Positions 1 to 38,715 of a DNA stretch of 38,910 nucleotides are shown here, one piece after another. The translations under genes were made by a program, and so were the position numbers. Source of the stretch: a virus; IMG/VR virus record IMGVR_UViG_3300042906_001042, positions 1-38,910 of that record; one strand, given 5' to 3'. Each line of letters begins with the position of its first letter. Positions within the stretch are counted from its first letter, which is position 1. The notes below the pieces were generated by a model. It saw only the letters and a list, made by a program, of their open reading frames with translations, searched no databases and had not been told where the DNA came from.

Positions 1-197
1 GTGCATGGCGGATGCGCCACCATCAGCAGATCCCAGCCGTCATGCAGCAGGTCGCGCGCGTCGCCACGGATGTGGCGGTTGCTGCCGTCCTCGCTCGGCA
101 GCAGGTCGCATGACCAAGCGTCGCAACCGCGCGCAAGGAACGCGCGGCGCACGACGCCCGAATATTCGCAGGCCACGAGGACGCGCAGCGGGGTCAC
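1..197 (-). CDS. Cytosine-C5 DNA methyltransferase-like protein, N-terminal part (cut by window start)
   Basis: The 65 visible residues start at GTG (197) and run off the window. They carry an N-terminal SAM-binding-like segment (VLVACEYSG) and reach the PPC of catalytic motif IV. Along its whole visible length this is a near copy of the intact gene at 36266-36892, with a handful of base changes; one of them turns the ATG start into GTG. Its start overlaps the stop of the 53-aa membrane protein gene by the same bases as in the other copy. Family knowledge: C5 methyltransferases attack cytosine through the motif IV Cys. The truncation is a window-edge effect, not evidence of a broken gene. Confidence 0.75.
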   Translation of the reverse strand, partial: MTPLRVLVACEYSGVVRRAFLARGCDAWSCDLLPSEDGSNRHIRGDARDLLHDGWDLLMVAHPPC

Positions 198-355
198 CGC
201 AACCCCGCCAGCGCAATCACCACCGCGCCCGTCACGACGCCGAGCAAGGCGAAGGCGAACCAGTAGACCGCCGTTCCCTGCCACCGCCGGTCCTCGTCCA
301 TCCAAGCCAGCGCATCCCTGCTGGCCTGGACGCGGCGCTCCTGTTCTTCGGTCAT
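194..355 (-). CDS. Small single-pass membrane protein (53 aa), left copy
   Basis: The charged N-terminal half (MTDEQERR... then WMDEDRRWQG) is followed by a membrane segment around residues 29-50 (YWFAFALLGVVTGAVVIALA). The ATG at 355 has GGAGG eight bases upstream; an in-frame ATG at 361 lies too close to that site. The stop overlaps the methyltransferase start (GTGA). It is homologous to the 53-aa gene at 36889-37050 and diverges mainly near the N-terminus. It could be a holin-like or envelope peptide of the early operon, but the function is unknown. Confidence 0.75.
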   Translation of the reverse strand: MTEEQERRVQASRDALAWMDEDRRWQGTAVYWFAFALLGVVTGAVVIALAGLR

Positions 356-8631: not shown

Positions 8632-8871
8632 ATGGCTGCGCGCAAAAACAAGCTGCGGCTCAACGACGACTGGAAGGCGAAGATCCAGGCGTCGAACCTG
8701 TGCTGGCGTCTCGCCGCGCACGTCGAGGGCAAGATCGAATTGAGCCCGACGCAGGTCCGCGCCGCTGAGATCCTGCTTCGCAAGACCGTGCCAGACCTTG
8801 GCCGCACCGAGGTAACCGGCCCCGAGGGCGGCCCTCAGGTCATCCGCTACGAGTGGAGCGAGCCCGAGTGA
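8632..8871 (+). CDS. Small terminase subunit-like protein (79 aa)
   Basis: A basic N-terminus (MAARKNKLRLNDDWKAKIQA) is followed by a helical part, IELSPTQVRAAEILLRKTVP, and a short acidic tail with GPEGGPQVIRYEW. This family commonly precedes the large terminase gene in podoviruses and would recognise phage DNA to start packaging. The ATG at 8632 has no good ribosome-binding site. A start at 8551 is possible but adds a poorly composed N-terminus. The end overlaps the terminase GTG (GTGA). The 133-base gap before it (8499-8631) shows a TTGACG (8557-8562) but no convincing -10. Confidence 0.68.
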   Translation: MAARKNKLRLNDDWKAKIQASNLCWRLAAHVEGKIELSPTQVRAAEILLRKTVPDLGRTEVTGPEGGPQVIRYEWSEPE

Positions 8872-10217
8872 GCGCGCCGCGCGTGCAGACCGTGCGGCTG
8901 CCTTACTCGCCTCGGCGAGCGTTCCTGCCGTTCCATCGCCGCACGCAACGCTGGGCCTGCCTCGTCGCGCATCGGCGCGCAGGGAAAACGGTTGCCGCGG
9001 TCAACGATCTGATCCGAGCCGCGATCACCGCGCAGCGGCCGCACGCGCATTATGCCTACGTCGCGCCGTATCGCTCGCAGGCCAAGTCCGTCGCGTGGGA
9101 CTACCTGAAACGCTTCGCCGCGCCCGCCACCGCTGGCGTCAACGAGGCCGAGCTGCTGCTCACGACGCAGACGGGCGCGAAGATCCAGCTGTTCGGCGCG
9201 GACAACGCCGACGCCATGCGCGGCCTCGGGTTCGACGGCGTCTACCTCGATGAATACGGCGATTTCCGCCCCTCGGTCTGGGGCAACGTCATCCGCCCGA
9301 CGCTCTCGGACAAGCAGGGCTGGGCGGTGATCGGCGGGACGCCCAAGGGCCGCAACCAGTTCTACGAGGCCTTCGACGCCGCGCAGCGCAGCCCAGACTG
9401 GTTCTGCCTGCGCCTGCCGGCCAGCGCCTCGGGCATCCTGCCGCCGACCGAGCTTCACGCCCTGCGCGCGCAACTGACGCAGGACCAGTACGACCAGGAG
9501 TACGAATGCAGCTTTGAGGCCGCGATCCTCGGCGCGTTCTACGGCGTCGAGATGCGCGAGGCCTCGGACGCGGGCCGCATCGGGCGCGTCCCGCACGATC
9601 CCGACCGCCCGGTGTTCACGGCGTGGGACATCGGCTACCGCGACGACACGGCGATCTGGTTCTACCAAGTCGCTGGCGGCGAGGTGCATCTGATCGACTA
9701 CCATGCCAGCAGCGGCTCGACCGTCGCGGATCTAGCCGAGGTCGTCGCAGGCAAGCCCTACCGCTACGCCCGCCACCACCTACCGCACGACGCGCGAGCG
9801 AAGACGCTGGCAAGCGGCGGGCGCAGCGTGGTCGAGCAGCTCGCGGCGTTGCTGGGCGGCATCGGCAAGTTCCAGATCGTGGCCGACCTTGGCGTGCAAG
9901 ACGGCATCCAAGCCGCGCGCCTGGTCCTGCCACGCTGCTGGTTCGACGCCGACCTCTGCCGCGATGGTATCGAGGCCCTGCGCCAGTACCAGCGCGAGTA
10001 CGACGAGGACAAGCGCGCCTTCCGCGCGACGCCTAGGCATGATTGGACCTCGCATCCTGCCGACGCTTTCCGTATGCTGGCCGTCGCGTGGCGCGAAGAG
10101 GCGCCCGTCGAGCCGCCTCGGGCCGACCGCCCGCTGCTCGTCGGCGCCGCAAACGCAGCCACGCTGAACGACATGTGGGCCGCGCACGACGCGCGCAGCA
10201 GGAGCGCCAGGATATGA
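8868..10217 (+). CDS. terL: Terminase large subunit
   Basis: The 449 residues from GTG 8868 carry an N-terminal ATPase: Walker A AHRRAGKT (34-41), Walker B GVYLDEYGDF (124-133, Asp128-Glu129) and a coupling-type GGTPKGRNQF. The C-terminal RNase H-like nuclease has AWDIGYRDDTAIW (Asp254, with Asp259 or Asp260) and a late SHPADAFRML (Asp399). It pumps DNA into the procapsid and cuts the concatemer. The length is usual for the family. The start overlaps the small-subunit stop and the next ATG overlaps its own stop. Confidence 0.93.
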   Translation: MSAPRVQTVRLPYSPRRAFLPFHRRTQRWACLVAHRRAGKTVAAVNDLIRAAITAQRPHAHYAYVAPYRSQAKSVAWDYLKRFAAPATAGVNEAELLLTTQTGAKIQLFGADNADAMRGLGFDGVYLDEYGDFRPSVWGNVIRPTLSDKQGWAVIGGTPKGRNQFYEAFDAAQRSPDWFCLRLPASASGILPPTELHALRAQLTQDQYDQEYECSFEAAILGAFYGVEMREASDAGRIGRVPHDPDRPVFTAWDIGYRDDTAIWFYQVAGGEVHLIDYHASSGSTVADLAEVVAGKPYRYARHHLPHDARAKTLASGGRSVVEQLAALLGGIGKFQIVADLGVQDGIQAARLVLPRCWFDADLCRDGIEALRQYQREYDEDKRAFRATPRHDWTSHPADAFRMLAVAWREEAPVEPPRADRPLLVGAANAATLNDMWAAHDARSRSARI

Positions 10218-11104: not shown

Positions 11105-11713
11105 ATGGCAATGACCCGCGACGAGCAGGACGCATTCGATCGCCGCATGGCGGGCATCATGGACCCGATGCTGCGCCCCGAAGGCACCGCCGGAGGCCCG
11201 GTGCGGTCCTACTCGCTCGACGACATCCGCCGCTTCCTCGGCTTCGGTAGTCGCCCGGCAATGTCGCCCGCCGAGGTCGCGGACGCCGCGCAGATGTACG
11301 AGCGGTTGCCAAACCCCGCGCTGCCTCCGACGCCGCCCGGCGGCTACGACGCCCCGTCGCCTTCGATCCCGTACATGCCCTCGACCGACCCGCGCGGCGC
11401 TGCGGCTCCGATCCCGCCGCCGCCGGCCCCGCGCGCTGCCCGGCCTCGTCCGCGCCTTCCGGCCATGCAAGGCGTCCCGAGCGAAGCCGACATGCAGTTC
11501 CAGCCCGCACGCCCCGACACGTTCGGCGGCCTGTCGCCCGCGGACATGGCGGCGATGGCCGCGCCCGCGCCCGTGCCGTCCCCTGTGATGGACCCAATCA
11601 GCCCGCCGCCGGCCCGGCCGATCGCCGCGCGCGGTCGCCCGTCGCCTGCCGATCTCGCTCGGGCGTTGCGCGAGTCCGACGAGCGGTTCGCGCGTAGCAC
11701 CGCGCAGCGATGA
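11105..11713 (+). CDS. Pro/Ala-rich hypothetical protein (202 aa)
   Basis: The N-terminal part is folded-looking and charged (MAMTRDEQDAFDRRMAGIMD). The middle and C-terminal parts are low-complexity, Pro/Ala/Arg-rich (PIPPPPAPRAARPRPRLP). AAGGAG lies eight bases before the ATG at 11105; an ATG at 11099 is too close to it. It may be a disordered virion or chaperone-type protein; no family recognised. The stop overlaps the glycosyltransferase start. Confidence 0.65.
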   Translation: MAMTRDEQDAFDRRMAGIMDPMLRPEGTAGGPVRSYSLDDIRRFLGFGSRPAMSPAEVADAAQMYERLPNPALPPTPPGGYDAPSPSIPYMPSTDPRGAAAPIPPPPAPRAARPRPRLPAMQGVPSEADMQFQPARPDTFGGLSPADMAAMAAPAPVPSPVMDPISPPPARPIAARGRPSPADLARALRESDERFARSTAQR

Positions 11714-12309
11714 TCACCATCGCCACCGTCCTGCGCTCTGGCGGCGAGTACGAGCCCCGGCACGTCGTCGCGCTCCGCGACATGTGCCGACGGTTCGCGC
11801 CGATGCACCGCTTCATCTGCCTGACAGACAAGCCCAACGCGCTGCCGTTAGAGACGATCGAGCTCCTCCACGATTGGCCGGGCTGGTGGTCGAAGATGGA
11901 GATCTTCCGGCTGCGCGGGCCGGTGCTGTACCTCGACCTCGACACCGTGATCGTGCGGGACATTTCGCCGGTCATCGAGCTGGCGGGCGACGACGAGTTC
12001 GTCATCCTGCGCGACTTCTACCGCGGCCGGATGAACAAGGCCGCGATGCAGTCGAGCATGATGCTGTGGTCGGGCGACATGAGCCGCCTCTACCGCGCCT
12101 TTCGCGAGGACCCGCGCTTCTACCTCGGCGGCGACCAGGAGTGGCTCGAGCAGCACCTCGACATCGCGCCCGCCTACTGGCAGGACATCTGCCCGCGCTC
12201 GATCAGCAGCTTCAAGGCCAGCCCGCGCTCGGCCTCGGAGCGCATCATCATCTTCCACGGCCACCCGCGCCCGTGGGAACAGGACGAGGTCAAGTATGCA
12301 GCGGCGTGA
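11710..12309 (+). CDS. Glycosyltransferase-like protein with DxD motif (199 aa)
   Basis: It begins ITIATVLRSGGEYEPRHVVA and has a clear metal/nucleotide-sugar motif, VLYLDLDTVIV (Asp76-x-Asp78). WPGWWSKMEIF and a late FHGHPRPWE also resemble GT-A-fold proteins of the GT8 type. It presumably transfers a sugar from a nucleotide donor; the acceptor is unknown. Its location inside the head-gene block, next to an FkbM methyltransferase gene, suggests modification of virion or cell-surface glycans. Overlaps both neighbours. Confidence 0.78.
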   Translation: MITIATVLRSGGEYEPRHVVALRDMCRRFAPMHRFICLTDKPNALPLETIELLHDWPGWWSKMEIFRLRGPVLYLDLDTVIVRDISPVIELAGDDEFVILRDFYRGRMNKAAMQSSMMLWSGDMSRLYRAFREDPRFYLGGDQEWLEQHLDIAPAYWQDICPRSISSFKASPRSASERIIIFHGHPRPWEQDEVKYAAA

Positions 12310-12931
12310 AGGCTGGCATGTCCCTGACGCCGATCAGGTGGCGCTGGAGATCATCCTCGCGGAGGTGGGCGACCTCGACACCGACATCCTGCCGCTGACG
12401 TCGAGCCGGCGCACCGTCGTGCAGGCGGGCGGCAACATCGGCATCTGGCCGGTCGCGCTGGCCGGGCATTTCGACAAGGTGCTGACGGTCGAGCCCGACG
12501 AGGAGAACCACGCGGCGCTGCTGCTGAATCTCGACGAGCGGCTCAAGGGCGCCGACCGGGCCAAGGTCTCGGCCTATCGCGGCGCGTTCGGCGCGTCGGC
12601 TGGCACGGGCGCGATGGACAGGTTCGATCGCCACAACATCGGCGCGCATCGCGTGAAGAACGGCGCCGAGTTCTCGATCATGCGGATCGACAGCTTCGAC
12701 ATCGACGACTGCGACCTCCTGTGCCTCGACGTCGAGGGCTACGAGCATTTCGCGGTGCAGGGCGCGAAGGAGACGATCTTTCGCTCCTGGCCGACCATCG
12801 TGCTCGAGTTGAAGGGGCTGGGCGAGCGGTACGGCGCGACCGACGTTGACACCATCACCATGCTGGCCGATTGGGGCTACATGATCGCGGGCCATGTGCA
12901 TCGCGACGTCATCTTCCGAAGGAGGCCGTGA
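12296..12931 (+). CDS. FkbM-family SAM-dependent methyltransferase (211 aa)
   Basis: SAM-binding motif I is VVQAGGNIGIWPVA (about 41-54), with the acidic residue in TVEPDEEN (Glu66). The family-typical LLCLDVEGYEHFAVQGAKET comes later, followed by PTIVLELKG. FkbM enzymes O-methylate sugars and small molecules. It overlaps the glycosyltransferase gene by 14 bases and is preceded by GAGG six bases from its ATG. Paired with that gene it may cap a transferred sugar. Confidence 0.83.
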   Translation: MQRREGWHVPDADQVALEIILAEVGDLDTDILPLTSSRRTVVQAGGNIGIWPVALAGHFDKVLTVEPDEENHAALLLNLDERLKGADRAKVSAYRGAFGASAGTGAMDRFDRHNIGAHRVKNGAEFSIMRIDSFDIDDCDLLCLDVEGYEHFAVQGAKETIFRSWPTIVLELKGLGERYGATDVDTITMLADWGYMIAGHVHRDVIFRRRP

Positions 12932-15180
12932 TGGCCGACGTCCAGCCGACCGGCGTGCAGAAGTTCCTGCAGGCGATATCGACCTACGAGAACGAATTCA
13001 CCCGCTGGGAGAAGCGCTGCACCAAGATCATCAAGCGCTACCGCGACGACACGCGCACGCAGTCGGGCAACGAGACGGTCAAGTTCAACATCTTCTGGTC
13101 GAACGTCCAGACGCTGATCCCGGCGGTTTACGCCAAGCTGCCGAAGGCCTCGGCCAAGCGGCGCTTCGGTGACCGCGACCAGATCGGGCGCGTGGCGGCG
13201 CAGCTGATCGAGCGCGCGCTGGACTACGAGATCGAGCATTACCCCGACTTCCGCGCCACGATGAAGTACGCCGTCGAGGACCGCTTCCTCGGCGGGCGCG
13301 GCGTCGCGTGGGTGCGGTACGAGCCGCATGTGCGCGCGCAGGAACTGGCGCTGCCCGAGGATGGCGCGCAGGTCACCGAGGACGTTGACGAGGACGGCAA
13401 CCTCCCCGAGGGCGCGGAGATGCCCGAGGAGATCGAGTACGAGTGCGCGCCGGTGGATTACGTCCACTGGAAGGACTTCGGCCACTCCTCGGCCAGGACA
13501 TGGGAAGAGGTCACGCAGGTCTGGCGCTGGGTCTACATGACCCGCGAGGCGCTGGTGGAGCGTTTCGGCGAGGACATGGGCCGCAAGATCCCGCTCGACA
13601 GCGGCCCCGACAACCTCGACGGCCCGAACCGCAAGCGCGAAGGCACGCGCGCGAAGATCTGCGAGCTGTGGTGCAAGGAGACCCAGAAGGTCTACTGGCT
13701 GCACAAGGGCATGGGTCAGTTCGTGGACGAGCGCGACGACCCGCTCGGGCTGGAAGGGTTCTATCCCTGCCCGAAGCCGCTCTACGCGACCACGACCTCG
13801 GACAACCTCGTCCCGGTTCCGGACTTCCTGCTGTATCAGGATCAGGCCAACGAACTCGACATCCTGTCCGACCGCATCGACGGGCTGGTGAAGGCGCTGC
13901 GGATGCGCGGCGTCTACGATGCCTCGCAGCCCGCGCTCCAGCGCCTCCTGACCGAGGGCGACAACAACACGCTGATCCCGGTCGATAAGTGGATGGCGTT
14001 CGGCGAAAAGGGCGGCCTGAAGGGCAGCATCGACCTCCTGCCGCTCGACACCCTCGCGCAGGCGCTGATCCAGTGCTACGGCGCGCGAGAGCAGATCAAG
14101 TCGCAGATCTACGAGATCACCGGCATCTCCGACATCATCCGAGGCCAGACCGCCGCGAGCGAAACGGCCACGGCGCAGCAGATCAAGGGCCAGTACGCCG
14201 GCCTGCGGCTCAAGTCGATGCAGGAAGAGGTCGCGCTGTTCGCCTCCGAACTGATCCGCCTCAAGGCGCAGATCATCGCGACCAAGTTCCAGCCGCAGAC
14301 GATCCTCGCCTACGCCGCCGCGCAGCAGATGTCGCCCGAGGACCAGCAGCTGATCCCCCAGGCGCTGCAGGTGCTGGCCGACAAGCCGCTGCGGAACTTC
14401 CGCATCGAGGTCGCGTCCGACAGCCTCGTCCAGATCGACGAGCAGCAGAACAAGCAGGACCGGCTGGAGTTCGTGCAGGCCTATGGCGGCTTCCTCGAGC
14501 GCGCGCTGCCGGTCGTGCAGCAGGCCCCGCAGGCCGCCGGCATCGTCATCGAGCTGATGAAGTACGGGATCGGCGCGTTCAAGCAGGCCGAACCGCTGGA
14601 AGGCACCCTCGATCGGATGCTGGAGGAGATCACCGCCCAGCAGCAGGCGCAGGCCGCCGCGCCGCCGCAGCCCGATCCCGAGCAGATGAAGGCGCAGGCC
14701 GACACCGCCATCGCGCAGCAGAAGGCGCAGTTCGACGCCCAGATGATGCAGGCCAAGCTGCAGGCCGACATGCAGATCGAGCAGATGAAGGCGCAGGCCG
14801 CCGCCGCGCTGGAGGAGCAACGCCAGCGCTTCGAGGCCGCGCTCAAGAGCGAGGAACTGGCCCAGAAGGTCGCGCTGGAGCAGGAGAAGGCCCGCCTCGA
14901 CGCCGAGACCAAGATCATGGTCGCGCGCATCGGCGTCAGCGGCGTGGACACGCCCGGCCTCGACATCGTGAGCGAGGCCAGCAACCGTTTGGCGACCGGC
15001 ATGTCCGAGGACGTGCGGTCGATGATCCAGCAGATGGTGCAGGACAGCATGGCGCGCGACGAGCGCATGATGGCGATGATGCAGGCGCTGATGCAGTCGA
15101 TGGGCGCGCCTAAGCGGATCGTGCGCGGTCCTGACGGGCGCGCGATGGGCGTCGAGGTCGTGACGATGGGGAATGCGTGA
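12931..15180 (+). CDS. Portal protein
   Basis: A 749-residue podovirus-type portal. It starts with an N-terminal YENEFTRWEKRCTKIIKRYR and NIFWSNVQTLIPAVYAKLPK. The body has acidic loops and an ITGISDIIRGQTAASETATA segment that is typical of portals. A long Gln/Ala/Glu coiled coil (about residues 565-670) precedes a short tail. Portals form the dodecameric DNA channel at one capsid vertex and dock the terminase. GGAGG lies five bases before the ATG, which overlaps the FkbM stop. Large frames on the other strand here are shadows. Confidence 0.88.
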   Translation: MADVQPTGVQKFLQAISTYENEFTRWEKRCTKIIKRYRDDTRTQSGNETVKFNIFWSNVQTLIPAVYAKLPKASAKRRFGDRDQIGRVAAQLIERALDYEIEHYPDFRATMKYAVEDRFLGGRGVAWVRYEPHVRAQELALPEDGAQVTEDVDEDGNLPEGAEMPEEIEYECAPVDYVHWKDFGHSSARTWEEVTQVWRWVYMTREALVERFGEDMGRKIPLDSGPDNLDGPNRKREGTRAKICELWCKETQKVYWLHKGMGQFVDERDDPLGLEGFYPCPKPLYATTTSDNLVPVPDFLLYQDQANELDILSDRIDGLVKALRMRGVYDASQPALQRLLTEGDNNTLIPVDKWMAFGEKGGLKGSIDLLPLDTLAQALIQCYGAREQIKSQIYEITGISDIIRGQTAASETATAQQIKGQYAGLRLKSMQEEVALFASELIRLKAQIIATKFQPQTILAYAAAQQMSPEDQQLIPQALQVLADKPLRNFRIEVASDSLVQIDEQQNKQDRLEFVQAYGGFLERALPVVQQAPQAAGIVIELMKYGIGAFKQAEPLEGTLDRMLEEITAQQQAQAAAPPQPDPEQMKAQADTAIAQQKAQFDAQMMQAKLQADMQIEQMKAQAAAALEEQRQRFEAALKSEELAQKVALEQEKARLDAETKIMVARIGVSGVDTPGLDIVSEASNRLATGMSEDVRSMIQQMVQDSMARDERMMAMMQALMQSMGAPKRIVRGPDGRAMGVEVVTMGNA

Positions 15181-15482
15181 TGCGCCAGCCCGCGATGGAA
15201 TGGCGGCCCGCGATGGACTGCTGGCTGCTCCGCACCGAGACGCCGCTCTCCGCGCGCCACGTCGCCGCCTGCAAGGACTTCATGCTCAAGATCCAGGCGG
15301 GGCGGCGCATCGGGCTGATGCCGGGCGACGTGCGCGACGACCTCGACGCAAGCGTCCGCGCGCTGAACGAGAACCGCATCCAGCAATGGGCCGCCGGCCC
15401 CGGCATGGACGGGCGCGGCGAAATCACCGTTTTCGGGGCCACGACCGGCACCGGCAAGACCTTCATGGACATGGGAGCCTGA
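15180..15482 (+). CDS. Hypothetical protein after portal (100 aa)
   Basis: The ATG at 15180 overlaps the portal stop; a GTG one codon earlier is possible. The protein begins MRQPAMEWRPAMDCWLLRTE and has a helical middle (VAACKDFMLKIQAGRRIGLM). It ends with a Gly/Thr-rich tail that looks P-loop-like by chance. No family recognised. The stop is one base from the next start. Confidence 0.62.
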   Translation: MRQPAMEWRPAMDCWLLRTETPLSARHVAACKDFMLKIQAGRRIGLMPGDVRDDLDASVRALNENRIQQWAAGPGMDGRGEITVFGATTGTGKTFMDMGA

Positions 15483-15483
15483 C

Positions 15484-16005
15484 ATGGCAGCGACTTGGCG
15501 AGCGACTTCCGGTGCGGTGGCGTATGCCTCCGCGAAGGACATGCTCAACGTCTTCAACGGCACCGCATCGGCGCGCATCATCCGCGTCTACCGGGCCTAC
15601 TGGTTCAACAACGGCACCGCAGCGGTGACCGGCGTCATCACGACTGCCCAATGCCGCCGCATCACGGCAGCGTCCGCAGGCACCGCCGTGACGCCCGTGA
15701 AGCACGACACGAACAGCAGCGCGCTAAACGCCGCCACGACCTGTGGCACCAACCAGACGGTCACCGGCAGCGACATCTTCCGCCGCTTCCTGTTCGTGAA
15801 CGAGGAGCCCGTGGTGGCCGGTACGACGCAGGCCAACTGGCTGACGCTGATCCCGTTCGCGGAGGTCTGGAACGCTGGCTACAGCGACACGAACGTCGAG
15901 CCAATCGTCTGCCGCGCGACGCAGGGCTTCGAGCTGTTCCACTCGGGCTCGTCCGCTGTCGGCACCGCCGATCTCGAAATCGAGTTCACCGATTCTGCGA
16001 CGTAA
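15484..16005 (+). CDS. Virion protein, single copy of a repeated beta domain (173 aa)
   Basis: Thr/Ala/Val-rich beta-type sequence. The stretches TAVTPVKHDTNSSAL, TVTGSDIFRR and NVEPIVCRATQGFEL recur, modified, in the gene at 16181-17422 (AVSPLKHDTASASL, TTSGIALKRI, DVEPIVLREGEGVAV). The two genes therefore share a domain. It probably builds head fibres or decoration. Location between portal and scaffold fits a structural role. Confidence 0.72.
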   Translation: MAATWRATSGAVAYASAKDMLNVFNGTASARIIRVYRAYWFNNGTAAVTGVITTAQCRRITAASAGTAVTPVKHDTNSSALNAATTCGTNQTVTGSDIFRRFLFVNEEPVVAGTTQANWLTLIPFAEVWNAGYSDTNVEPIVCRATQGFELFHSGSSAVGTADLEIEFTDSAT

Positions 16006-16008
16006 GCC

Positions 16009-16188
16009 ATGAAGACGCTGCGCCACAAGGCTTGCCTGCATGAGTGGGAGGTGGAGGATTCCTTCGCCTCCCGCGTGGAGAACGACATCAACGGAGGGCT
16101 AGGCCCGGCGTCGCCTCCCATCGTCTGCCCTGGGTGCAAGGTGCCGTCGCGATACAGCGAATTTGTCGTCGTGACGCCCGATGCCTGA
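16009..16188 (+). CDS. Small zinc-ribbon-like protein (59 aa)
   Basis: MKTLRHKACLHEWEVEDSFA at the start and IVCPGCKVPSRYSEFV near the end give Cys9, His11, Cys40 and Cys43 as a possible zinc site. It lies between two beta-rich virion genes and overlaps the next start by eight bases. Short FmdB-like zinc ribbons are frequent in such clusters. Function unknown. Confidence 0.62.
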   Translation: MKTLRHKACLHEWEVEDSFASRVENDINGGLGPASPPIVCPGCKVPSRYSEFVVVTPDA

Positions 16189-17422
16189 GACCTTCCTCGT
16201 CTACCAGCGCGCAGTCGATGTGCGTCCGCTTGAGGATGGGCTGTTCGCCCTCTTCAACGACGAGGAATCGGACTCGCGCCGGTACTACGAGTTGGTCAAT
16301 CTCAGGCTCTCGCCCGTCGCCCCGACGAGCAACGCGCAGAGCGGCTCGGGTCGCGCGGGCGCTCTTGCCCTTTATCGCACCACGGCAAGCAGCGGCGGCG
16401 ATGCAGTCTCGCCCCTCAAGCACGACACCGCATCGGCCAGCCTGCCATCTGAGGTGACGTTCACGACCAACCCCGACAGCGTCACGACCTCTGGCATCGC
16501 CCTCAAGCGCATTGCTGATGCCCCAACATATTTTGCGGCCATCGGCGGCACGAGCCTTTCGTCGCGTCAGTTCAGCGGCGGCTTGGTAACGTGGAAGCAC
16601 GACGCCTTTGCAGCGCTTGGCGACTTCGGTGCGAGCGTCGATGTGGAGCCAATCGTCCTGCGCGAGGGCGAGGGAGTTGCAGTCACGCAGACAGAGTACG
16701 GCGTTCCGCACAGCATGATCGTGGCGATGTTCGTCACCGACACCGCGACGGGCGCGACCTACACCTACCGCAGCACGGACGTTGCCACCGATGCCCTGAT
16801 TGACGGCCCCCTCGTCAGCCTGTTCAACGCTTCTGGCAGCGGCGTCGTGCTGGCCGTGCGCGTCGCGTTCATCCCGCTGGACGGAGAGAGCAACGCCACC
16901 ACCACGCTCTCACTCACCGTGCCTGCCATCAACCTTCGCATCGCGCGCATCTTTGGCCTCGACACCTCGGCGGCAGCGGCGAACATCATCAAGCCCGACA
17001 CGACCGTCTCGACGCCATCGTCCATGCGCGCCGTCGTCGGCCCGTTCCGCTCGCGTCTTGAGGGATCGTGGCAATGGGATTGGCCCTACACACACGGCGC
17101 GACGATCTCCATTGCCCAGCAGCAGAATGCTGGCGTGTTCCGGCGCAACCCAGCGATGAAGGCGTTCGGAGCCATCGGGCAGTCGCTCAACGGCATCCAG
17201 CTCGACGGGCTTGCTGACATCGACATCTTCGCCGCCGAGCCGGGCAACGGGATCATCGTGCGGCCAGGAGAGGGCGTGGGCCTGCTCGCCGGGACCGCCG
17301 GGCTTCTGTCGAACAGCACCTTCATCAACTACAACATCGAAGCCACGATCCTCCACTACCCGCCGCCCTCTGCCCCGGCTGGCGGGAACACCTACTCCCG
17401 CTCCCGCGTCGTCAACAGGTGA
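16181..17422 (+). CDS. Virion protein with duplicated beta domains (413 aa)
   Basis: Two related halves. Residues 1-190 contain AVSPLKHDTASASLPSEVTF and DVEPIVLREGEGVAVTQTEY. Residues 205-405 contain NIIKPDTTVSTPSSMRAVVG and a late GNGIIVRPGEGVGLLAGTAG before FINYNIEATILHY. Both halves follow the plan of the 173-aa neighbour. This suggests tandem duplication of one sandwich domain into a fibre or decoration protein. No enzymatic motif seen. Confidence 0.7.
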   Translation: MPETFLVYQRAVDVRPLEDGLFALFNDEESDSRRYYELVNLRLSPVAPTSNAQSGSGRAGALALYRTTASSGGDAVSPLKHDTASASLPSEVTFTTNPDSVTTSGIALKRIADAPTYFAAIGGTSLSSRQFSGGLVTWKHDAFAALGDFGASVDVEPIVLREGEGVAVTQTEYGVPHSMIVAMFVTDTATGATYTYRSTDVATDALIDGPLVSLFNASGSGVVLAVRVAFIPLDGESNATTTLSLTVPAINLRIARIFGLDTSAAAANIIKPDTTVSTPSSMRAVVGPFRSRLEGSWQWDWPYTHGATISIAQQQNAGVFRRNPAMKAFGAIGQSLNGIQLDGLADIDIFAAEPGNGIIVRPGEGVGLLAGTAGLLSNSTFINYNIEATILHYPPPSAPAGGNTYSRSRVVNR

Positions 17423-17426
17423 TGCC

Positions 17427-17969
17427 ATGCTGAAACAATCGACGGCGCGCAACCTGATGGTGCTGATGACCGACAGCACCGATCACATCACCGGCAAGAC
17501 CGGCCTGACGCTCACGATCACCGCCAGCAAGGATGGCGCTGCCTTCGCGTCGATCGCCCCGACGGTCACCGAGCGCGGCGACGGCTGGTACTCGCTGGCC
17601 CTGACCACGGCGCACACCGACACGCTGGGCGACTTCGTCGTTCATGTCACGGCCTCGGGCGCGGACCCGACCGATGTGCGCGAAGAGGTCTTCGCCTCGC
17701 TGCCGGGCGACAGCGTGACGGTCTCTTCGCTGGCAAGCAACTCGATCACCGCCGCGTCCATCGCCACCGATGCGGTCACCGAGATCCAGAGCGGGCTGGC
17801 GACCTCGTCGGCGCTCTCGACGGTCGATGGCAACGTGTCGGCCATCAAGGCCAAGACCGACAGCCTCGCCTTTACGGTCGCCGGTCAGGTGGACGCCAAC
17901 ATCCAGTACGTGAACGACGTACAGGTCAGGGGTACCGGTACCACCGCTGATCCGTGGAACCCCGTGTGA
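17427..17969 (+). CDS. Virion beta-sandwich / fibre-type protein (180 aa)
   Basis: The first ~95 residues (ITGKTGLTLTITASKDGAAF, ERGDGWYSLALTTAHTDTLG) form a beta-sandwich-like domain I know from phage structural proteins. It is followed by a repetitive helical stalk (SLASNSITAASIATDAVTEI) and a C-terminal ending, GTGTTADPWNPV. The stop overlaps the next start (TGATG). Probably part of a head or tail fibre. Confidence 0.7.
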   Translation: MLKQSTARNLMVLMTDSTDHITGKTGLTLTITASKDGAAFASIAPTVTERGDGWYSLALTTAHTDTLGDFVVHVTASGADPTDVREEVFASLPGDSVTVSSLASNSITAASIATDAVTEIQSGLATSSALSTVDGNVSAIKAKTDSLAFTVAGQVDANIQYVNDVQVRGTGTTADPWNPV

Positions 17970-18361
17970 TGTTCGCAAGCTGGGGCGACAGCTGGGGCGC
18001 GTCTTGGTCCGACTCCTGGGGCTATGGCGTCATTCCGCCGCCGGTCGTCGTCGATGACACGCACGACGGCGACTACCTCCGCAAGAAGCTCAAGCGCGAG
18101 CGCGAGGAGGTCGAGGCGCGCCGGCGCCGGGTGCTTGAACTCTACGAGCGGATCGTGGAGGGGCTGGAGCCTGCGCCCGAGGAAGTCGAGCAGGCTGTTT
18201 CGGCAGCCATCGAAGCGGTCGGCGTGGAGACGCGCGCCGACATCATCGAGGCCCCGTTGATCGACCTGGGGCGCATTCTGGCAGGCCTTGAGCGTGCGCT
18301 GGACCTCCAGCGGCGTCTCGCGCTTGAGGCCGACGACGAGGAGGTGATGTTGCTGCTATGA
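17969..18361 (+). CDS. Coiled-coil protein with N-terminal WGDSWG repeats (130 aa)
   Basis: It begins MFASWGDSWGASWSDSWGYG, a triplicated SWG(D/A)SW motif, followed by a Pro-rich hinge. A highly charged helix follows (KKLKREREEVEARRRRVLEL), then acidic helices to the end. The Trp repeat resembles virion assembly tags in neighbouring fibre genes of other phages. No named family. Coupled to both neighbours by overlapping codons. Confidence 0.62.
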   Translation: MFASWGDSWGASWSDSWGYGVIPPPVVVDDTHDGDYLRKKLKREREEVEARRRRVLELYERIVEGLEPAPEEVEQAVSAAIEAVGVETRADIIEAPLIDLGRILAGLERALDLQRRLALEADDEEVMLLL

Positions 18362-18687
18362 GGACGCGATACGTCTGGCGCGACGGGGAGATGGTCGAGA
18401 TCGCCATCGCGCACCCCGGCGCCGAAGCCAAGATCCAGATCGTCCCAGACATCGGCGGCTACAAGTCGATGGCGGACGGGTCGTGGATCAGCAGCCGCTC
18501 GCAGCATCGCGAGCATCTGCGCCGGCACAACTGCTTCGAGGTCGGCAACGAGATGCCGAAGCCTCGCGAGATCACAGCCCCGAGCCGCGAGCAGCGCATC
18601 AAGCGCCTGCGCGAGCAGCTGTGGAACATGACCGACAAGCAGGCGGACAAGATCCTGGCCGAGCTGCGGTCGCAACCCCGGAGATGA
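18358..18687 (+). CDS. Conserved phage protein before scaffold (109 aa)
   Basis: The hallmark is GGYKSMADGSWISSRSQHRE then HLRRHNCFEVGNE, a block conserved in many podovirus and siphovirus head regions. Its function is not known to me. The C-terminal helix is basic (QRIKRLREQLWNMTDKQADK). The start overlaps the previous stop (ATGA), and the scaffold ATG follows its stop by one base. Confidence 0.75.
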   Translation: MRTRYVWRDGEMVEIAIAHPGAEAKIQIVPDIGGYKSMADGSWISSRSQHREHLRRHNCFEVGNEMPKPREITAPSREQRIKRLREQLWNMTDKQADKILAELRSQPRR

Positions 18688-18688
18688 G

Positions 18689-19747
18689 ATGAGCGACATC
18701 CAGAAGGTCGATAGCGACAGCCGAAAGGAACTGCTGGCCGAGCAGTTCAGCAAGATCGAGGCCGAGGTCGCCGCCGCGCCGCCCGAGGCCGTCCCCGAGG
18801 CCGAGCCCGAGCCCCCCGCCGAAAGCCGCGCCCGCGATGCCTCAGGCCGCTTCGCCCGAGCCGATGGCGCGCCCGCCCCGAAGGCGGCGCCCGCCGGGCC
18901 GCAGGGGACCGCCGCCGAGGCCGCCGAGGCCCCAGAGGCCGCCGAGGAGCCCGTCTGGAAGCGCCCGCCGCAGTCGTGGAAGAAGGAGTTCCACGATGCG
19001 TGGCTGAAGGCCGACCCGCGCCTGCAGGAATACGCCTACCAGCGCGAGGAGCAGATGCGCGCGGGCATCGAGCCGATCCGCGCCAAGGCCGAGTTCGCGG
19101 ACCGCATGAACGAGGCGATCGCGCCATACATGGACACGATCCGCGGCCTCGGGATCGAGGCGCCGCAGGCCGTGCGCGCGCTCATGGAGGCCGACAACAT
19201 CCTCCGCAACTCGTCCCCGCAGGACAAGCTCAGCTATTTCCATTCCCTCGCCCGGTCCTACGGCATAGACTTGGCAGGACAGGGATCGCCCGCCCCACAG
19301 GCCTCCGTCGATCCCAACTTCGTGGCGCTCCAGAACGAGTTGATCAAGATCCGGGGCGAAGTCACGGGCTGGAAGCAGGCGCAGGAGGAGCAGGCCAACG
19401 CCGTGCTCCTCAACGAGGTTTCCCAGTTCGCCACGAAGGTCGAACACTTCGAGGCCGCAAGGCCGACGATGATCCAGCTTCTACAGAGCGGCGTCGCGAC
19501 CACCCTCGAAGATGCGTATCAGAAGGCCCTTCGTCTCGACGAGGAGCTTTTCGCGCAGCAGCAGCAGGCCCAACAGGCCAAGGCGCTCGCGGAGCGGAAA
19601 GCCTCGGCAGACAGGGCGGCGAAAGCCGCCAGGGCCGCTGCGGTATCGGTGCGCGGCTCCACACCCGGAGCGCCGACCGGAACCAAGGCATCCGACCGCC
19701 GCTCCCTCCTGGCCGAGCAGCTCGACGGGCTCTCGGAGCGGCTCTAA
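18689..19747 (+). CDS. Scaffolding-type protein (352 aa)
   Basis: Acidic Ala/Pro/Glu-rich N-terminal third (EAVPEAEPEPPAESRARDAS) with no stable fold. A helical core with WKRPPQSWKKEFHDAWLKAD follows, then a Gln-rich helix and a basic C-terminus (KASDRRSLLAEQLDGLSERL). This length, charge pattern and position directly upstream of the coat gene are those of internal scaffold proteins, which guide procapsid assembly and leave before DNA entry. GGAG lies five bases before the ATG. Confidence 0.8.
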   Translation: MSDIQKVDSDSRKELLAEQFSKIEAEVAAAPPEAVPEAEPEPPAESRARDASGRFARADGAPAPKAAPAGPQGTAAEAAEAPEAAEEPVWKRPPQSWKKEFHDAWLKADPRLQEYAYQREEQMRAGIEPIRAKAEFADRMNEAIAPYMDTIRGLGIEAPQAVRALMEADNILRNSSPQDKLSYFHSLARSYGIDLAGQGSPAPQASVDPNFVALQNELIKIRGEVTGWKQAQEEQANAVLLNEVSQFATKVEHFEAARPTMIQLLQSGVATTLEDAYQKALRLDEELFAQQQQAQQAKALAERKASADRAAKAARAAAVSVRGSTPGAPTGTKASDRRSLLAEQLDGLSERL

Positions 19748-19773
19748 CCAACCCTCTGTAAGGAGTGCCTTCA

Positions 19774-20775
19774 ATGGCGTTCGCGAACAGTTCGATCAGC
19801 GATATCATCGCGACGAACATCCAGTCGCGTTCCGGCGAACTCGCCGACAACGTGACCAACAACAACGCGCTGCTGCGTCGCCTCAAGGAGCGCGGCAACG
19901 TGAAGACGTTCTCGGGCGGTAACGTGATCCTTCAGGAGATCATGTACAACGACTCGACGACGAACAACACCAACTCCTACTCGGGCTACGAGGTCCTGAA
20001 CGTCTCGCAGAACTCGCCCATCAGCGCGGCGCAGTTCTCGATCACGCAGTACGCCTCGGCGGTCTCGATCTCGGGTCTGGAGATGATCCAGAACTCGGGC
20101 AAGGAGGCGATCATCGACCTGCTCGACGGGCGCATGTCCGTCGCGGAGGCGCAGCTCGCCAACCGCATCGGCGGCGACATCTACCTCGACGGCACCGGCA
20201 ACTCGGGCAAGAACATCACCGGCCTCGCGGCGGCGGTTCCCGACGCGCCCGGCTCCGGCACGTATGGCGGCATCAACCGCCTGACGTGGTCGTTCTGGCG
20301 CTCGGTGGCCTACTCGGGCCTCACGAACGGCGGCGCGGCGGTCACGGCGTCCAACATCCAGCAGTACATGGACTCGGTCGCGGTGCAGCTGATCCGTGGC
20401 ACCGACAAGCCGGACCTGATCGTGGCGGACAACAACTACTACCGCCTCTACCTGCAGTCCCTGCAGTCGATCCAGCGCATCTCGGACAGCGGCTCGAGCA
20501 TGGCTGGCGCTGGCTTCGCCTCGCTCAAGTACTACGGCGCGGGCATGGCCTCCGATGTCGTCCTCGACGGCGGTATCGGCGCGAACGCGACCGCGAACCA
20601 CATGTGGTTCCTCAACACGAAGTACCTGCACTTCCGTCCGCACGCGGATCGGAACTTCGTGCCAATCGGCGGCGAGCGTCAGGCGGTCAACCAGGACGCC
20701 ATCGTCAAGCTCATCGGCTGGGCCGGCAACCTCACCAGCAGCGGGCCGCAGTTCAGCGGCGTGCTGATCGCCTGA
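19774..20775 (+). CDS. Major capsid protein (HK97-like fold, P22-type)
   Basis: The 333 residues have AAGGAG eight bases before the ATG, the best-spaced site in the block. An N-terminal helix (ADNVTNNNALLRRLKERGNV) is followed by an E-loop-like GGNVILQEIMYNDSTTNNTN. The body ends in a P-domain/A-domain pattern: FWRSVAYSGLTNGGAAVT, YLQSLQSIQRISDSG and HMWFLNTKYLHFRPHADRNF. It would form the icosahedral shell with the preceding scaffold. A strong call from context and fold pattern. Confidence 0.88.
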   Translation: MAFANSSISDIIATNIQSRSGELADNVTNNNALLRRLKERGNVKTFSGGNVILQEIMYNDSTTNNTNSYSGYEVLNVSQNSPISAAQFSITQYASAVSISGLEMIQNSGKEAIIDLLDGRMSVAEAQLANRIGGDIYLDGTGNSGKNITGLAAAVPDAPGSGTYGGINRLTWSFWRSVAYSGLTNGGAAVTASNIQQYMDSVAVQLIRGTDKPDLIVADNNYYRLYLQSLQSIQRISDSGSSMAGAGFASLKYYGAGMASDVVLDGGIGANATANHMWFLNTKYLHFRPHADRNFVPIGGERQAVNQDAIVKLIGWAGNLTSSGPQFSGVLIA

Positions 20776-20790
20776 GAAGGAGACCAGATC

Positions 20791-21327
20791 ATGGCGTATT
20801 CCTTCGTGGAAAATCGGGTCGGCCTCCCCGCCGTCACCGACATCGACTCGGGCGTCACGATGCCCAACGGGACGTCCGCGATCCCGACTCCGCCGGCAAC
20901 GCTCGGCATGGTCGCGCGCGCGTTCGACCCGACCTACGGCGAGGGTGAGTTCATCCTCCTCCTCGGCGTGGCCTCGACCGAGGTCGGCTCGCTGGTGTCC
21001 TACAACGCCTCGACCTACCAGACCACGCTGGCCGCCAACACGGCGAACCTCGCGGGTCCGGTGGCCGTGGCGATGTCGGCCAACGGTGCCGCCACGTTCG
21101 GCTGGTACCAGATCGGCGGCCTCGCGGTCATGAAGAAGACCGCCGTCGCCGTCAACCCGCAGGTCGCCATCTACCAGTCCGCCACGGCGGGCCGAGTGAT
21201 GCCGACGGTGGCGACGGGCAAGCAGCTGCTCGGCGCGCGCGCCGCCAATCTGGCGACGGTCGCGTCCGGTGTCTCGACGGTGATCGTCTCGATCAACCGT
21301 CCGCACAAGCAGGGCCAGATCATTTGA
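20791..21327 (+). CDS. Capsid decoration / head-fibre-like protein (178 aa)
   Basis: AAGGAG lies nine bases before the ATG. It is a beta-rich sequence (GEFILLLGVASTEVGSLVSY, GPVAVAMSANGAATFGWYQI) with a long ATAGRVMPTVATGKQLLGAR segment. A gene of this size and composition typically follows the coat gene and encodes a surface protein. The intrinsic terminator at 21333-21366 closes this part of the operon. Confidence 0.75.
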   Translation: MAYSFVENRVGLPAVTDIDSGVTMPNGTSAIPTPPATLGMVARAFDPTYGEGEFILLLGVASTEVGSLVSYNASTYQTTLAANTANLAGPVAVAMSANGAATFGWYQIGGLAVMKKTAVAVNPQVAIYQSATAGRVMPTVATGKQLLGARAANLATVASGVSTVIVSINRPHKQGQII

Positions 21328-21332
21328 CGACT

Positions 21333-21366
21333 AGGGGCGGCGGGTTCGCCCGTCGCCCCTTCCTTT
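21333..21366 (+). terminator. Rho-independent terminator after the capsid and decoration genes
   Basis: AGGGGCGGCGGG and CCCGTCGCCCCT form a 12-bp stem (one G-T pair) closed by a TTCG tetraloop, followed by TCCTTT. It begins six bases after the decoration stop codon. It probably lets the head genes be expressed more strongly than the tail genes. Confidence 0.85.
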
Positions 21367-21376
21367 CGAGGTACGC

Positions 21377-22195
21377 ATGGCGCTGCCGTCGCGCGTTCTC
21401 AACTCCGGCGTCACCAGCCTCTCGACCGTGGCGATCTGCGGCGAGGGCGCGAGCGACGTCTCGGCAGCAGGCAGCACCTCCAGCAACGCGACGTCGCTCT
21501 CCAGCATCTACAACCGGATCTCCACGGTCGCCGCAGGCGCTGGCGTGAAGCTGCCGCCGACCGAAATGGGCGCGACGGTCTTCGTCGCAAACGCGGGCGC
21601 AAACCCGTTGACGGTCTATCCCTACGACACCGGCTCGACCATCGGCGGCTCCGCATCCAACGCTCTGGTCCCTGGCGCGTCTGCCATCTACTCGGCGGTC
21701 TCCAACACGCGCTGGGAGCCCCTGCAGGGCTATGGCGTGGCAGTACCCGCCGCCTACGGGTCGTTCTCGTCTACCGCCACGCAGACCGCCGCGCTCGTCA
21801 ACACGGCTTATCCGATCACGTTCAACACGACCGCCGAGAGCTACCTTGTGAGCATCGGCTCGCCCGCCTCGCGGATCGTGTGCGCGCAGGCCGGCGTCTA
21901 CAATTTCGAGTTCTCCGCGCAGTTCGACAAGACCGCTGCTTCGACCGCCGCCGTCTACATCTGGTACAGGGTCAACGGCTTCGACATCGCGAACTCGGGA
22001 AGCAAGGTTGCCGTGAATGGTTCGGATGCGGAGATCATTGCGGCGTGGAACTTCGTGCAGACGATGGCCGCTGGCGATCGCTTCGAGCTCGTCTGGTCAA
22101 CGGACGACACCAACTGCTTCCTCGCTGGCTTTCCGGCCTCTGCGCCCGTGCCTGCGATCCCCTCCATCATCCTGACCGCAACGCAGATCCGATGA
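21377..22195 (+). CDS. Two-domain virion protein with jelly-roll-like C-terminus (272 aa)
   Basis: Residues 1-115 (VAICGEGASDVSAAGSTSSN, GVKLPPTEMGATVFVANAGA, LTVYPYDTGSTI) match the 119-aa protein at 22986-23345. Residues 120-272 look like a C1q/TNF-type jelly roll (AGVYNFEFSAQFDKTAASTA, YIWYRVNGFDIANSG, RFELVWSTDDTNCFLAGFP). Probably a trimeric fibre or decoration with a receptor-type head. The MptE-like gene starts on its stop codon. Confidence 0.75.
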   Translation: MALPSRVLNSGVTSLSTVAICGEGASDVSAAGSTSSNATSLSSIYNRISTVAAGAGVKLPPTEMGATVFVANAGANPLTVYPYDTGSTIGGSASNALVPGASAIYSAVSNTRWEPLQGYGVAVPAAYGSFSSTATQTAALVNTAYPITFNTTAESYLVSIGSPASRIVCAQAGVYNFEFSAQFDKTAASTAAVYIWYRVNGFDIANSGSKVAVNGSDAEIIAAWNFVQTMAAGDRFELVWSTDDTNCFLAGFPASAPVPAIPSIILTATQIR

Positions 22196-22974
22196 TCCTC
22201 GCCGGAAACCTCGACCAGACCCTTCCGATCGTCTGCAACGTGGACGACGACGTCGTGCGCGCGCACGTGCAGGCGGCCTGCAAGCTGAAGCTGCCGTGGC
22301 TCGAGATGGTCGAGGCGCACGACCGGCCCGCCATCGTGGTTGGCGGCGGCCCGTCGATGCGCGCCCTGCGCCCGATGATCCTGGCGCTGCGGAATGGCGG
22401 GGCCGAGGTCTTCGCCACCAACGGCACCGTGCCGGTCCTGTACGCAGCGGGCATCTCGTCGGATCACCATGTCCTGCTCGACGCCCGGCCGCAGAACGTC
22501 GCCTTCGTGGAGGGGCCGAAGCCTCAGCACTATCTGGTCGCCTCCCAGTGCCACCCGGACCTGTTCCGGGCCATTGCGGGCCACCCGGCGACCATCTGGC
22601 ACCCGGCCTACCCAGAGATCGACGAGTGGATCGGCCACCGCGAGGCCGTGCTGATCGGCGGCGGCACGACGGTCGGGCTGCAGGCCCTGTCGATCGCCTA
22701 CGCGCTCGGCCACCGCAAGATCCACCTTTTCGGCTTCGACAGCAGCTACTCCGAAGCCGGCGAGGGCCATGCCTACCCGCAGCCGCTCAACGCCGACGAG
22801 GAGCGCCAGGAGTTCCGCGTGGGCGACCGGGCCTTCATCTGCGCGCCGTGGATGGCCCGGCAGGCGATGGAGTTCCAGATCGCGTCCCGTCAATTGTGCG
22901 ATGGGGATGCGGAATTGTATGTTCACGGCACGGGACTTCTCCCGGCCATAGCCGCCCAGATGGGCAGAAACTGA
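22192..22974 (+). CDS. DUF115 / MptE-like protein (260 aa)
   Basis: A Rossmann-like domain with AIVVGGGPSMRALRPM (about 47-62), ATNGTVPVLYAAGISSDHHV, a second glycine loop IGGGTTVGLQALSIAYALGH and LFGFDSSYSEAGEGHAY. These are the features of DUF115 proteins (6-hydroxymethylpterin pyrophosphokinase MptE-like). In bacteria such domains occur in motility-accessory (Maf) glycosyl-type enzymes that act on flagellin. Here it is wedged between two paralogous virion genes, suggesting a sugar modification of the virion or host surface. The substrate is unknown. Confidence 0.82.
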   Translation: MILAGNLDQTLPIVCNVDDDVVRAHVQAACKLKLPWLEMVEAHDRPAIVVGGGPSMRALRPMILALRNGGAEVFATNGTVPVLYAAGISSDHHVLLDARPQNVAFVEGPKPQHYLVASQCHPDLFRAIAGHPATIWHPAYPEIDEWIGHREAVLIGGGTTVGLQALSIAYALGHRKIHLFGFDSSYSEAGEGHAYPQPLNADEERQEFRVGDRAFICAPWMARQAMEFQIASRQLCDGDAELYVHGTGLLPAIAAQMGRN

Positions 22975-22985
22975 AAGGACGTCCC

Positions 22986-23345
22986 ATGCCGATCCCCTCT
23001 CGCGTGCAGGCCTCGGGCAACTCGGGCCTCGCCACCACCTCCATCTGCGGCGACGGCGCGACCGGCCTGACCGCGACCGGCTCGACCTCGGCGGACGCGC
23101 TGCAGCTCTCGGCGGTCTGGAACACCGTCGGGACCACGGCGGCCAGCACGGGCGTCAAGCTCCCGCCGACCGAGGCCGGGGCGATGGTGTGCGTCTACAA
23201 CGCGGGCGCCAGCACGCTGACGGTCTACCCGGCGACGGGCTCGACCATCAACGCCGGCGCCTCCTCGCTGAGCGTGACCTCGACCACGCGCGTCCTGTTC
23301 ATCGCGACGAGCGCGACGACCTGGATCTCGATCGCGGGCGCCTGA
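22986..23345 (+). CDS. Small virion protein, paralogue of the N-terminal domain at 21377 (119 aa)
   Basis: The sequence parallels residues 1-115 of the 272-aa gene: SICGDGATGLTATGSTSADA, GVKLPPTEAGAMVCVYNAGA and LTVYPATGSTINAG. It ends after this one beta domain. AAAGGA lies just upstream of the ATG. The pair arose by duplication around the MptE-like gene and probably forms base or stalk units of a head fibre. Confidence 0.75.
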   Translation: MPIPSRVQASGNSGLATTSICGDGATGLTATGSTSADALQLSAVWNTVGTTAASTGVKLPPTEAGAMVCVYNAGASTLTVYPATGSTINAGASSLSVTSTTRVLFIATSATTWISIAGA

Positions 23346-38691: not shown

Positions 38692-38715
38692 GGTGAAGCG
38701 TTTAGCATTCGAAAC

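What the first reader, a model, noticed from the sequence alone, without database searches (positions are those of the whole stretch)
11710..22974. Sugar-active enzymes embedded in the head-gene block
A DxD glycosyltransferase-like gene and an FkbM methyltransferase gene, overlapping each other, precede the portal gene. A DUF115 (MptE-like) gene lies between two paralogous virion genes. MptE-like domains occur in bacterial flagellin-glycosylation (Maf) proteins. A GNAT-type gene lies farther on. Inference: this phage may decorate its own virion with a methylated sugar, or alter the host surface late in infection. I know of no described system with this exact set.
Basis: inference. Interest (0 to 1): 0.7.

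Follow-up and report, generated by a model that had tools for sequence, protein, structure and literature searches.

The report
Phage genes for methylated virion sugars
This phage carries, among the genes that build its head, three enzymes predicted to attach a sugar chain and cap it with a methyl group, and the same three occur fused into one protein in a related phage, so the phage probably decorates its own particle much as the algal virus PBCV-1 does.

Summary
A GT8-like glycosyltransferase (11710-12309) overlaps an FkbM methyltransferase (12296-12931) by 14 bp just before the portal. A DUF115 gene (true start 22192) lies between two paralogous genes of the head-tail block.

The GT model matches glycogenin and LgtC, with DxD, GDQ and HGxPRPW motifs kept. 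The DUF115 model matches the core of the flagellin glycosyltransferase Maf (Z 22.4), better than the pterin kinase that names its Pfam family (Z 15.5).

New evidence joins the three genes. One relative (L284) encodes all three as a single 686-aa protein, GT8-DUF115-FkbM. Other relatives fuse DUF115 to GT8 or to another methyltransferase. Among 26 DUF115-bearing contig groups where both gene slots are visible, partners sit either before the portal (10) or with DUF115 after the capsid gene (16), never both. The GT-FkbM pair also sits in the head block of unrelated HK97-type (13 contig groups), T7-like and other phages.

Best reading: one pathway builds a short glycan and O-methylates it, most likely on a virion protein. 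It works like PBCV-1 A064R. Acceptor, donor sugar and activity are inferred. The GNAT gene is not part of the set. New variant of a known kind.

The parts
11710..12309 (+). GT8-like (GT-A fold) glycosyltransferase, 199 aa; D76-x-D78, D102, G141-D142-Q143, H183-G184-x-P-R-P-W189
   Evidence: PHROG 1962 E 1.8e-34; invariant motifs in 24 relatives; AlphaFold2 model pLDDT 95.1, glycogenin Z 17.8 over 186 residues, LgtC Z 16.6, PBCV-1 A064R-D1 Z 14.1
12296..12931 (+). FkbM-family SAM-dependent methyltransferase, 211 aa; overlaps the GT gene by 14 bp
   Evidence: PF05050 E 2.7e-8 over gathering score; TIGR01444 over cut-off; profile matches solved FkbM 2py6 E 3.6e-7
22192..22974 (+). DUF115 / Maf_flag10-core (PF01973) protein, 260 aa, predicted glycosyltransferase
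   Evidence: PF01973 E 1.7e-19; model pLDDT 93.2; Maf 5mu5 Z 22.4, rmsd 2.7 over 216 residues; profile vs Maf E 7.7e-11
12931..15180 (+). portal protein (right boundary of the GT-FkbM slot)
   Evidence: PHROG 12082 E 1.1e-184
8853..10217 (+). terminase large subunit (left boundary of the GT-FkbM slot)
   Evidence: tblastn match to the terminase genes of L003-L005
19765..20775 (+). major capsid protein (left boundary of the DUF115 slot); possible acceptor
   Evidence: PHROG 9953 E 1.4e-104
20791..21327 (+). capsid decoration-type protein, 178 aa; possible glycan acceptor
   Evidence: PHROG 29386 virion structural protein E 9.6e-25; its C-terminal ~100 aa are shared by the decoration proteins of DUF115-bearing relatives and not found in the short ones of several DUF115-less relatives
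21377..22195 (+). paralogous head-block protein 1 (272 aa, Ser+Thr 22%), upstream of DUF115; possible acceptor
   Evidence: 50% identical to 22986-23345; weak BclA_C match E 0.21; composition
22986..23345 (+). paralogous head-block protein 2 (119 aa, Ser+Thr 31%), downstream of DUF115; possible acceptor

Best explanation
The GT8-like, DUF115 and FkbM proteins are one cytosolic pathway made late in infection with the head proteins. Most likely step order: the DUF115 protein, which has the core fold of Maf flagellin glycosyltransferases, or the GT8-like enzyme puts a first sugar on Ser/Thr (GT8 glycogenin uses Tyr) of a freshly made virion protein; the other enzyme extends it; FkbM O-methylates the product as a cap. 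Donor sugars are taken from the host. SHOWN by sequence and model: the three enzyme families, intact catalytic motifs, purifying selection, linkage to head genes, and physical fusion of all three in a relative. INFERRED: that the enzymes are active, the order of steps, that the acceptor is a virion protein (20791-21327 or the paralogues at 21377 and 22986 are the first candidates), and the benefit (shielding the particle, tuning adsorption, or escaping host receptors or defences). I hold 'one glycan-building and methylating pathway' at about 0.9 and 'on the virion' at about 0.65.
For: (1) Rosetta-stone fusion: L284 (contig of an uncultured Rhodopila MAG; MCP 55% identical) has one 686-aa ORF right after MCP and decoration gene, in order GT8 - DUF115 (PF01973 E 1.6e-14) - FkbM (PF05050 E 3.1e-12). 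L334 has GT8-DUF115-Methyltransf_24 in one ORF. GT8-DUF115 or DUF115-GT8 fusions occur in 11 contig groups besides L284 and DUF115-SAM-methyltransferase fusions in 33 of 95 (L334 is counted there as GT8-DUF115). (2) Complementary distribution: of 26 DUF115-bearing contig groups with both slots seen, 10 have FkbM before the portal (9 with GT recorded too) with a free-standing DUF115; 16 have none there but carry a methyltransferase and/or GT with DUF115 in the capsid slot (11 DUF115-MTase, 2 fused to GT8, 3 with separate GT4-like and Methyltransf_11 genes); none has both. Six contig groups without DUF115 also lack GT-FkbM. (3) GT lies directly upstream of FkbM in 123 of 131 FkbM loci. (4) Placement in the head block in unrelated phages: between MCP and head closure in 13 HK97-type contig groups, each also with a short 178-aa gene just upstream that may be sialyltransferase-like; between portal and MCP in T7-like L201; before terminase and portal in L200; between capsid and head-closure genes in S20. 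(5) Folds: GT to glycogenin, LgtC and A064R-D1; DUF115 to Maf. (6) No clear membrane-spanning stretch in any of the three.
Against: No biochemical or mass-spectrometric data exist for this phage. No cultured relative with the set was found. Contigs are related, so the counts are not independent; I see three to four separate lineages in support (window clade, L227/L239/L242/L261 group, L100, L284). Some relatives have a free DUF115 whose other slot could not be seen. Some close relatives have no DUF115, so the trait is dispensable. GT8 enzymes such as LgtC also act on host LOS. The DUF115 protein lacks the extra N- and C-terminal domains of Maf. The link of the 178-aa gene to DUF115/GT42 is weak (E 4e-4).
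Confidence: 0.6

Rival explanations
1. The same pathway modifies host surface glycans (LPS core, capsule) late in infection or in lysogeny, e.g. to stop progeny re-adsorbing to debris or to exclude other phages.
For: GT8 enzymes such as LgtC work on lipooligosaccharide; LgtC is among the best fold matches, Z 16.6. The phage looks temperate: CI/LexA-like repressor at 38011-38736, Peptidase_S24 E 5.3e-17, so conversion is possible.
Against: Genes are buried in and translationally overlapped with the head operon, not near the repressor or genome ends; none of the three has a clear membrane segment. Recurrent placement beside capsid, portal and head-closure genes in several unrelated phage types is not expected for a surface-conversion cargo.
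Confidence: 0.22
2. The three genes are independent cargo genes that happen to lie in the head block and do different things.
For: In the window they sit in two slots about 9 kb apart; relatives of GT and of FkbM occur separately in other phages.
Against: Three-domain fusion L284, other fusions, and the all-or-none complementary distribution.
Confidence: 0.05
3. DUF115 here is a pterin kinase (MptE/HPPK) supplying folate-like cofactors, unrelated to sugars.
For: Pfam name PF01973 'MptE-like'; HPPK 8sd5 is the second-best fold, Z 15.5.
Against: Maf is clearly closer by fold (Z 22.4) and by sequence (E 7.7e-11 vs 1e-4); the HPPK segment read as SDLDG aligns with LLDAR here; fused or adjacent to glycosyltransferases and methyltransferases.
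Confidence: 0.02
4. The pathway glycosylates and methylates something else in the cytosol, such as phage DNA or a host protein.
For: Acceptor not identified; phage GTs acting on DNA are known (general knowledge).
Against: No base-modification or nucleotide-synthesis genes were recognised in the scans made, though the whole window was not annotated exhaustively; FkbM enzymes act on secondary metabolites and sugars (general knowledge); the closest solved homologues act on protein or saccharide.
Confidence: 0.07

Closest known systems
PBCV-1 A064R (chlorovirus capsid glycan enzyme; PMC9614988)
   Same: A three-transferase set, two GTs plus a SAM methyltransferase, in a virus; A064R-D1 shares the GT-A fold with the window GT (2p73 Z 14.1); builds and O-methylates the end of the glycan on the major capsid protein. 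The relative L284 has the same one-polypeptide layout (686 vs 638 aa).
   Different: Eukaryotic virus; A064R-D2 belongs to a new GT family and I did not compare it with DUF115; D3 not compared with FkbM; window enzymes are separate genes; acceptor unknown.
Maf / PseD flagellin glycosyltransferases (5mu5; PMC11339370)
   Same: Core Maf_flag10 domain PF01973, closest fold and sequence match of the DUF115 protein; Maf modifies Ser/Thr of a self-assembling structural protein.
   Different: Only the core domain (260 vs 666 aa); far under the PseD cut-off (24 vs 670 bits); sits with phage head genes; nonulosonate synthesis genes were not seen but not searched for specifically.
GT8 glycosyltransferases (glycogenin, LgtC) and P1 PmgQ (PHROG 1962)
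   Same: Fold, DxD, GDQ and HGxxxPW motifs; P1 PmgQ 34% identical.
   Different: Shorter (199 aa); specificity unknown; no Pfam Glyco_transf_8 hit.
Mycobacteriophage virion glycosylation (Freeman et al. 2023, cited in PMC11256854)
   Same: Phages with GT genes and glycans attached to major capsid proteins (Che8, Rita).
   Different: GTs reported near the genome end in the relative Maravista; FkbM or DUF115 involvement not stated in the text I could read; the original paper is not held.
Enterobacterial flagellin glycosylation islands (PMC4875605)
   Same: GTs combined with FkbM or other methyltransferases, sometimes fused, in the locus of the structural protein they modify.
   Different: Bacterial flagellin, not phage; many use GT41 enzymes.

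Membership tests
GT8-type GT-A glycosyltransferase | GT-A fold like glycogenin/LgtC | tested here: met
   Model pLDDT 95.1; glycogenin Z 17.8, rmsd 2.7, 186 aligned; LgtC Z 16.6, rmsd 3.0, 192 aligned
GT8-type GT-A glycosyltransferase | DxD metal site, GDQ, HGxxxPW motifs | tested here: met
   D76, D142, H183, P188, W189 invariant, D78 nearly so, in 24 relatives; aligned with glycogenin
GT8-type GT-A glycosyltransferase | Pfam Glyco_transf_8 match | tested here: inconclusive
   No Pfam hit; profile vs glycogenin E 4.7e-4
FkbM methyltransferase | PF05050 / TIGR01444 above curated cut-offs | tested here: met
   34.6 vs 22.7 bits; 43.6 vs 37.7 bits
FkbM methyltransferase | O-methyltransferase activity | not testable with these tools
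   needs assay
Maf flagellin glycosyltransferase | Maf_flag10 core domain and fold | tested here: met
   PF01973 E 1.7e-19; 5mu5 Z 22.4 over 216 residues
Maf flagellin glycosyltransferase | extra N-terminal Rossmann-like and C-terminal helical domains | tested here: not met
   260 aa; aligns only with 5mu5 residues 244-498
Maf flagellin glycosyltransferase | PseD/NF050051 cut-off | tested here: not met
   24.1 vs 670 bits
MptE / HPPK pterin kinase | SDLDG segment of HPPK | tested here: not met
   LLDAR at that place; HPPK fold Z 15.5, below Maf. The catalytic role of SDLDG is my own knowledge, not tested
GT42 sialyltransferase (Cst-I/II) | fold and sequence relation | tested here: inconclusive
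   Z about 10.6 over 183 residues; sequence E 0.03; catalytic residues not tested
PBCV-1 A064R-like capsid glycan enzyme | GT, GT and methyltransferase in one protein | tested here: not met
   separate genes in the window; one protein only in relative L284
PBCV-1 A064R-like capsid glycan enzyme | glycan found on capsid protein | not testable with these tools
   needs mass spectrometry

The most novel reading that the evidence does not exclude
A widespread, modular phage system (GT8 + Maf-core DUF115 + methyltransferase, with the methyltransferase swapped among FkbM and other families and the domains fused or split) writes a methyl-capped glycan on the virion. It has been carried into the head operons of several unrelated tailed phage lineages, which makes it a general bacterial-virus counterpart of the PBCV-1 capsid glycan machinery.
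Probability: 0.45. Interest if true: 0.8.

Novelty: new variant of a known kind. Interest (0 to 1): 0.62.

Why it matters
Glycosylated phage particles are known in few cases and their enzymes are rarely traced. The three-in-one fusion and the DUF115 fusions give small soluble proteins to assay, and the gene order names candidate acceptors next door. If true, many uncultured phages carry methyl-capped virion glycans, which would affect adsorption, immune recognition of phages and host defence. It also suggests a function to test for P1 PmgQ, a glycosyltransferase of the same PHROG family.

Tried and rejected
DUF115 as pterin kinase: rejected as best reading. GNAT as part of the set: rejected, since it follows the gp10-like gene (directly or closely) in BUCT555, ppBjS10J-1, ctMlz233 and Mx8, which lack the sugar genes in these slots. 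My first reading that most 448-aa DUF115 fusions were DUF115-GT (note 1) was wrong; 44 of 46 long proteins first classified were DUF115-methyltransferase. tblastn of the window DUF115 in GenBank phages found nothing. The decoration protein as acceptor: its C-terminal ~100 aa domain is shared by the two decoration types of DUF115-bearing relatives and not found in the short ones of DUF115-less relatives, but a protein of the same cluster also occurs in DUF115-less L006; kept as a lead only. Relation of the 178-aa gene of HK97-type phages to DUF115/GT42: suggestive, not established. Literature: no paper found tying DUF115 or FkbM to phage virions; only openly licensed papers were searchable.
Full report
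WHAT IS THERE. The window is a whole IMG/VR record of a tailed phage with 67.6% GC. Its capsid protein, portal and gp10-like gene match the Mx8 / BUCT555 / ppBjS10J-1 group. A CI-like repressor (38011-38736, - strand) suggests a temperate life. Two slots in the head block carry sugar-type genes. Slot A, between terminase and portal, has the GT (11710-12309) and FkbM (12296-12931). Slot C, between the capsid protein and gene 23349, has DUF115 (22192-22974). Genes are coupled: GT and FkbM overlap by 14 bp, FkbM and portal by 1 bp, and DUF115 starts inside the stop of the gene before it. The two genes around DUF115 are paralogues.

WHAT THE PROTEINS ARE. The GT model (pLDDT 95.1) matches glycogenin at Z 17.8 and LgtC at Z 16.6, with PBCV-1 A064R domain 1 at Z 14.1. 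The DxD, GDQ and HGxPRPW motifs are kept. FkbM passes the Pfam and NCBIfam cut-offs. The DUF115 model (pLDDT 93.2) matches Maf from Magnetospirillum at Z 22.4 over 216 residues, HPPK at 15.5 and Cst sialyltransferases at about 10.6. Sequence profiles give the same order. All three evolve under purifying selection.

WHY THEY BELONG TOGETHER. I collected relatives from the viral and genome collections. In 95 contig groups with DUF115, 50 are free-standing, 33 are fused to a SAM methyltransferase, 11 to the GT8-like domain in either order, and one is GT8-DUF115-FkbM. That last one, L284, is a single stop-free 686-aa ORF placed after the capsid and decoration genes; Pfam sees MptE-like and FkbM in it, and the GT8 part is found by my profile (E 4.4e-27). 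L334 joins GT8, DUF115 and a different methyltransferase, Methyltransf_24. Another lineage has free DUF115 with separate GT4-like, Methyltransf_11 and sometimes GT8 genes; the GT4-like match is weak (E 0.0037).

Where both slots could be seen (with for the separate genes), 10 groups have FkbM in slot A with free DUF115, 9 of them with GT recorded; 16 have no GT-FkbM there but carry a methyltransferase and/or GT with DUF115 in slot C; none has both; and the 6 groups without DUF115 have no GT-FkbM. A Fisher test on 10 against 16 gives 1.9e-7, but contigs share ancestry, so this is descriptive. Two of the 16 are GT8 fusions without a recognised methyltransferase in these slots. One group, L112, had a mixed reading and was counted as a methyltransferase fusion. 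L116, merged into it or into a relative by shared sequence, has lost most of the methyltransferase part, so the rule is not without exception.

WHERE THE SET OCCURS. GT lies directly upstream of FkbM in 123 of 131 FkbM loci. By contig group, 45 pairs sit between terminase and portal of this phage group, 13 between capsid and head-closure genes of HK97-type phages, one between portal and capsid of a T7-like phage, one before terminase and portal, and three could not be assigned, of which L268 is by eye the same terminase-portal layout. In all 13 HK97-type groups a 178-aa gene precedes the pair. It may be a short sialyltransferase/DUF115-like protein, but the evidence is weak. The marine phage S20 has a larger block of GTs, methyltransferases, FkbM and a weak MptE-like gene between capsid and head closure.

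HOW IT MOST LIKELY WORKS. A short glycan is started by one transferase, extended by the other and capped by O-methylation. The acceptor is most likely a virion protein made in the same operon. This rests on head-block placement in unrelated phages, lack of clear membrane segments and the analogy to Maf, which modifies a structural protein subunit (PMC11339370), and to PBCV-1 A064R, which builds and methylates the capsid glycan (PMC9614988). Which protein, which sugar and which order are not shown.

LIMITS. There is no experiment; enzyme activity is inferred. Gene calls in relatives are mechanical. Host-surface modification stays the main rival.

Noticed in passing
window 1-300 and 36696-36995: A 300-nt direct repeat, 97% identical, near both ends of the record; may be an imperfect terminal overlap of strain variants or a real duplication.
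   Followed up: partly
L033, L056, L132, L134, between terminase fragment and portal (e.g. L056:1494-2498): A 309-334-aa stretch ending in terminase-like sequence looks like an intein (Hint-type start) inside the terminase gene.
   Followed up: no
L116:11556-12401: DUF115-methyltransferase fusion in which most of the methyltransferase part is deleted, leaving a 281-aa protein; L064 looks similar.
   Followed up: partly
L034, L035, L068, L059, L073 slot C: HNH-endonuclease-like or similar selfish-looking genes (clusters c21, c68) inserted next to DUF115.
   Followed up: no
window 15177-17969: A variable slot between portal and scaffold genes; among the loci fetched the window's genes there recur in only a few near-identical ones (L152, L153), while relatives carry other structural-looking genes.
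   Followed up: no
P1 pmgQ (NC_005856 near 81449-82102): P1 PmgQ and P7 HdmD are relatives of the window GT, which offers a cultured model.
   Followed up: no
window 24799-26364: The gp10-like product matches PHROG 5107 labelled 'amidase' although relatives name it phage stabilization protein; the PHROG label is probably wrong.
   Followed up: no
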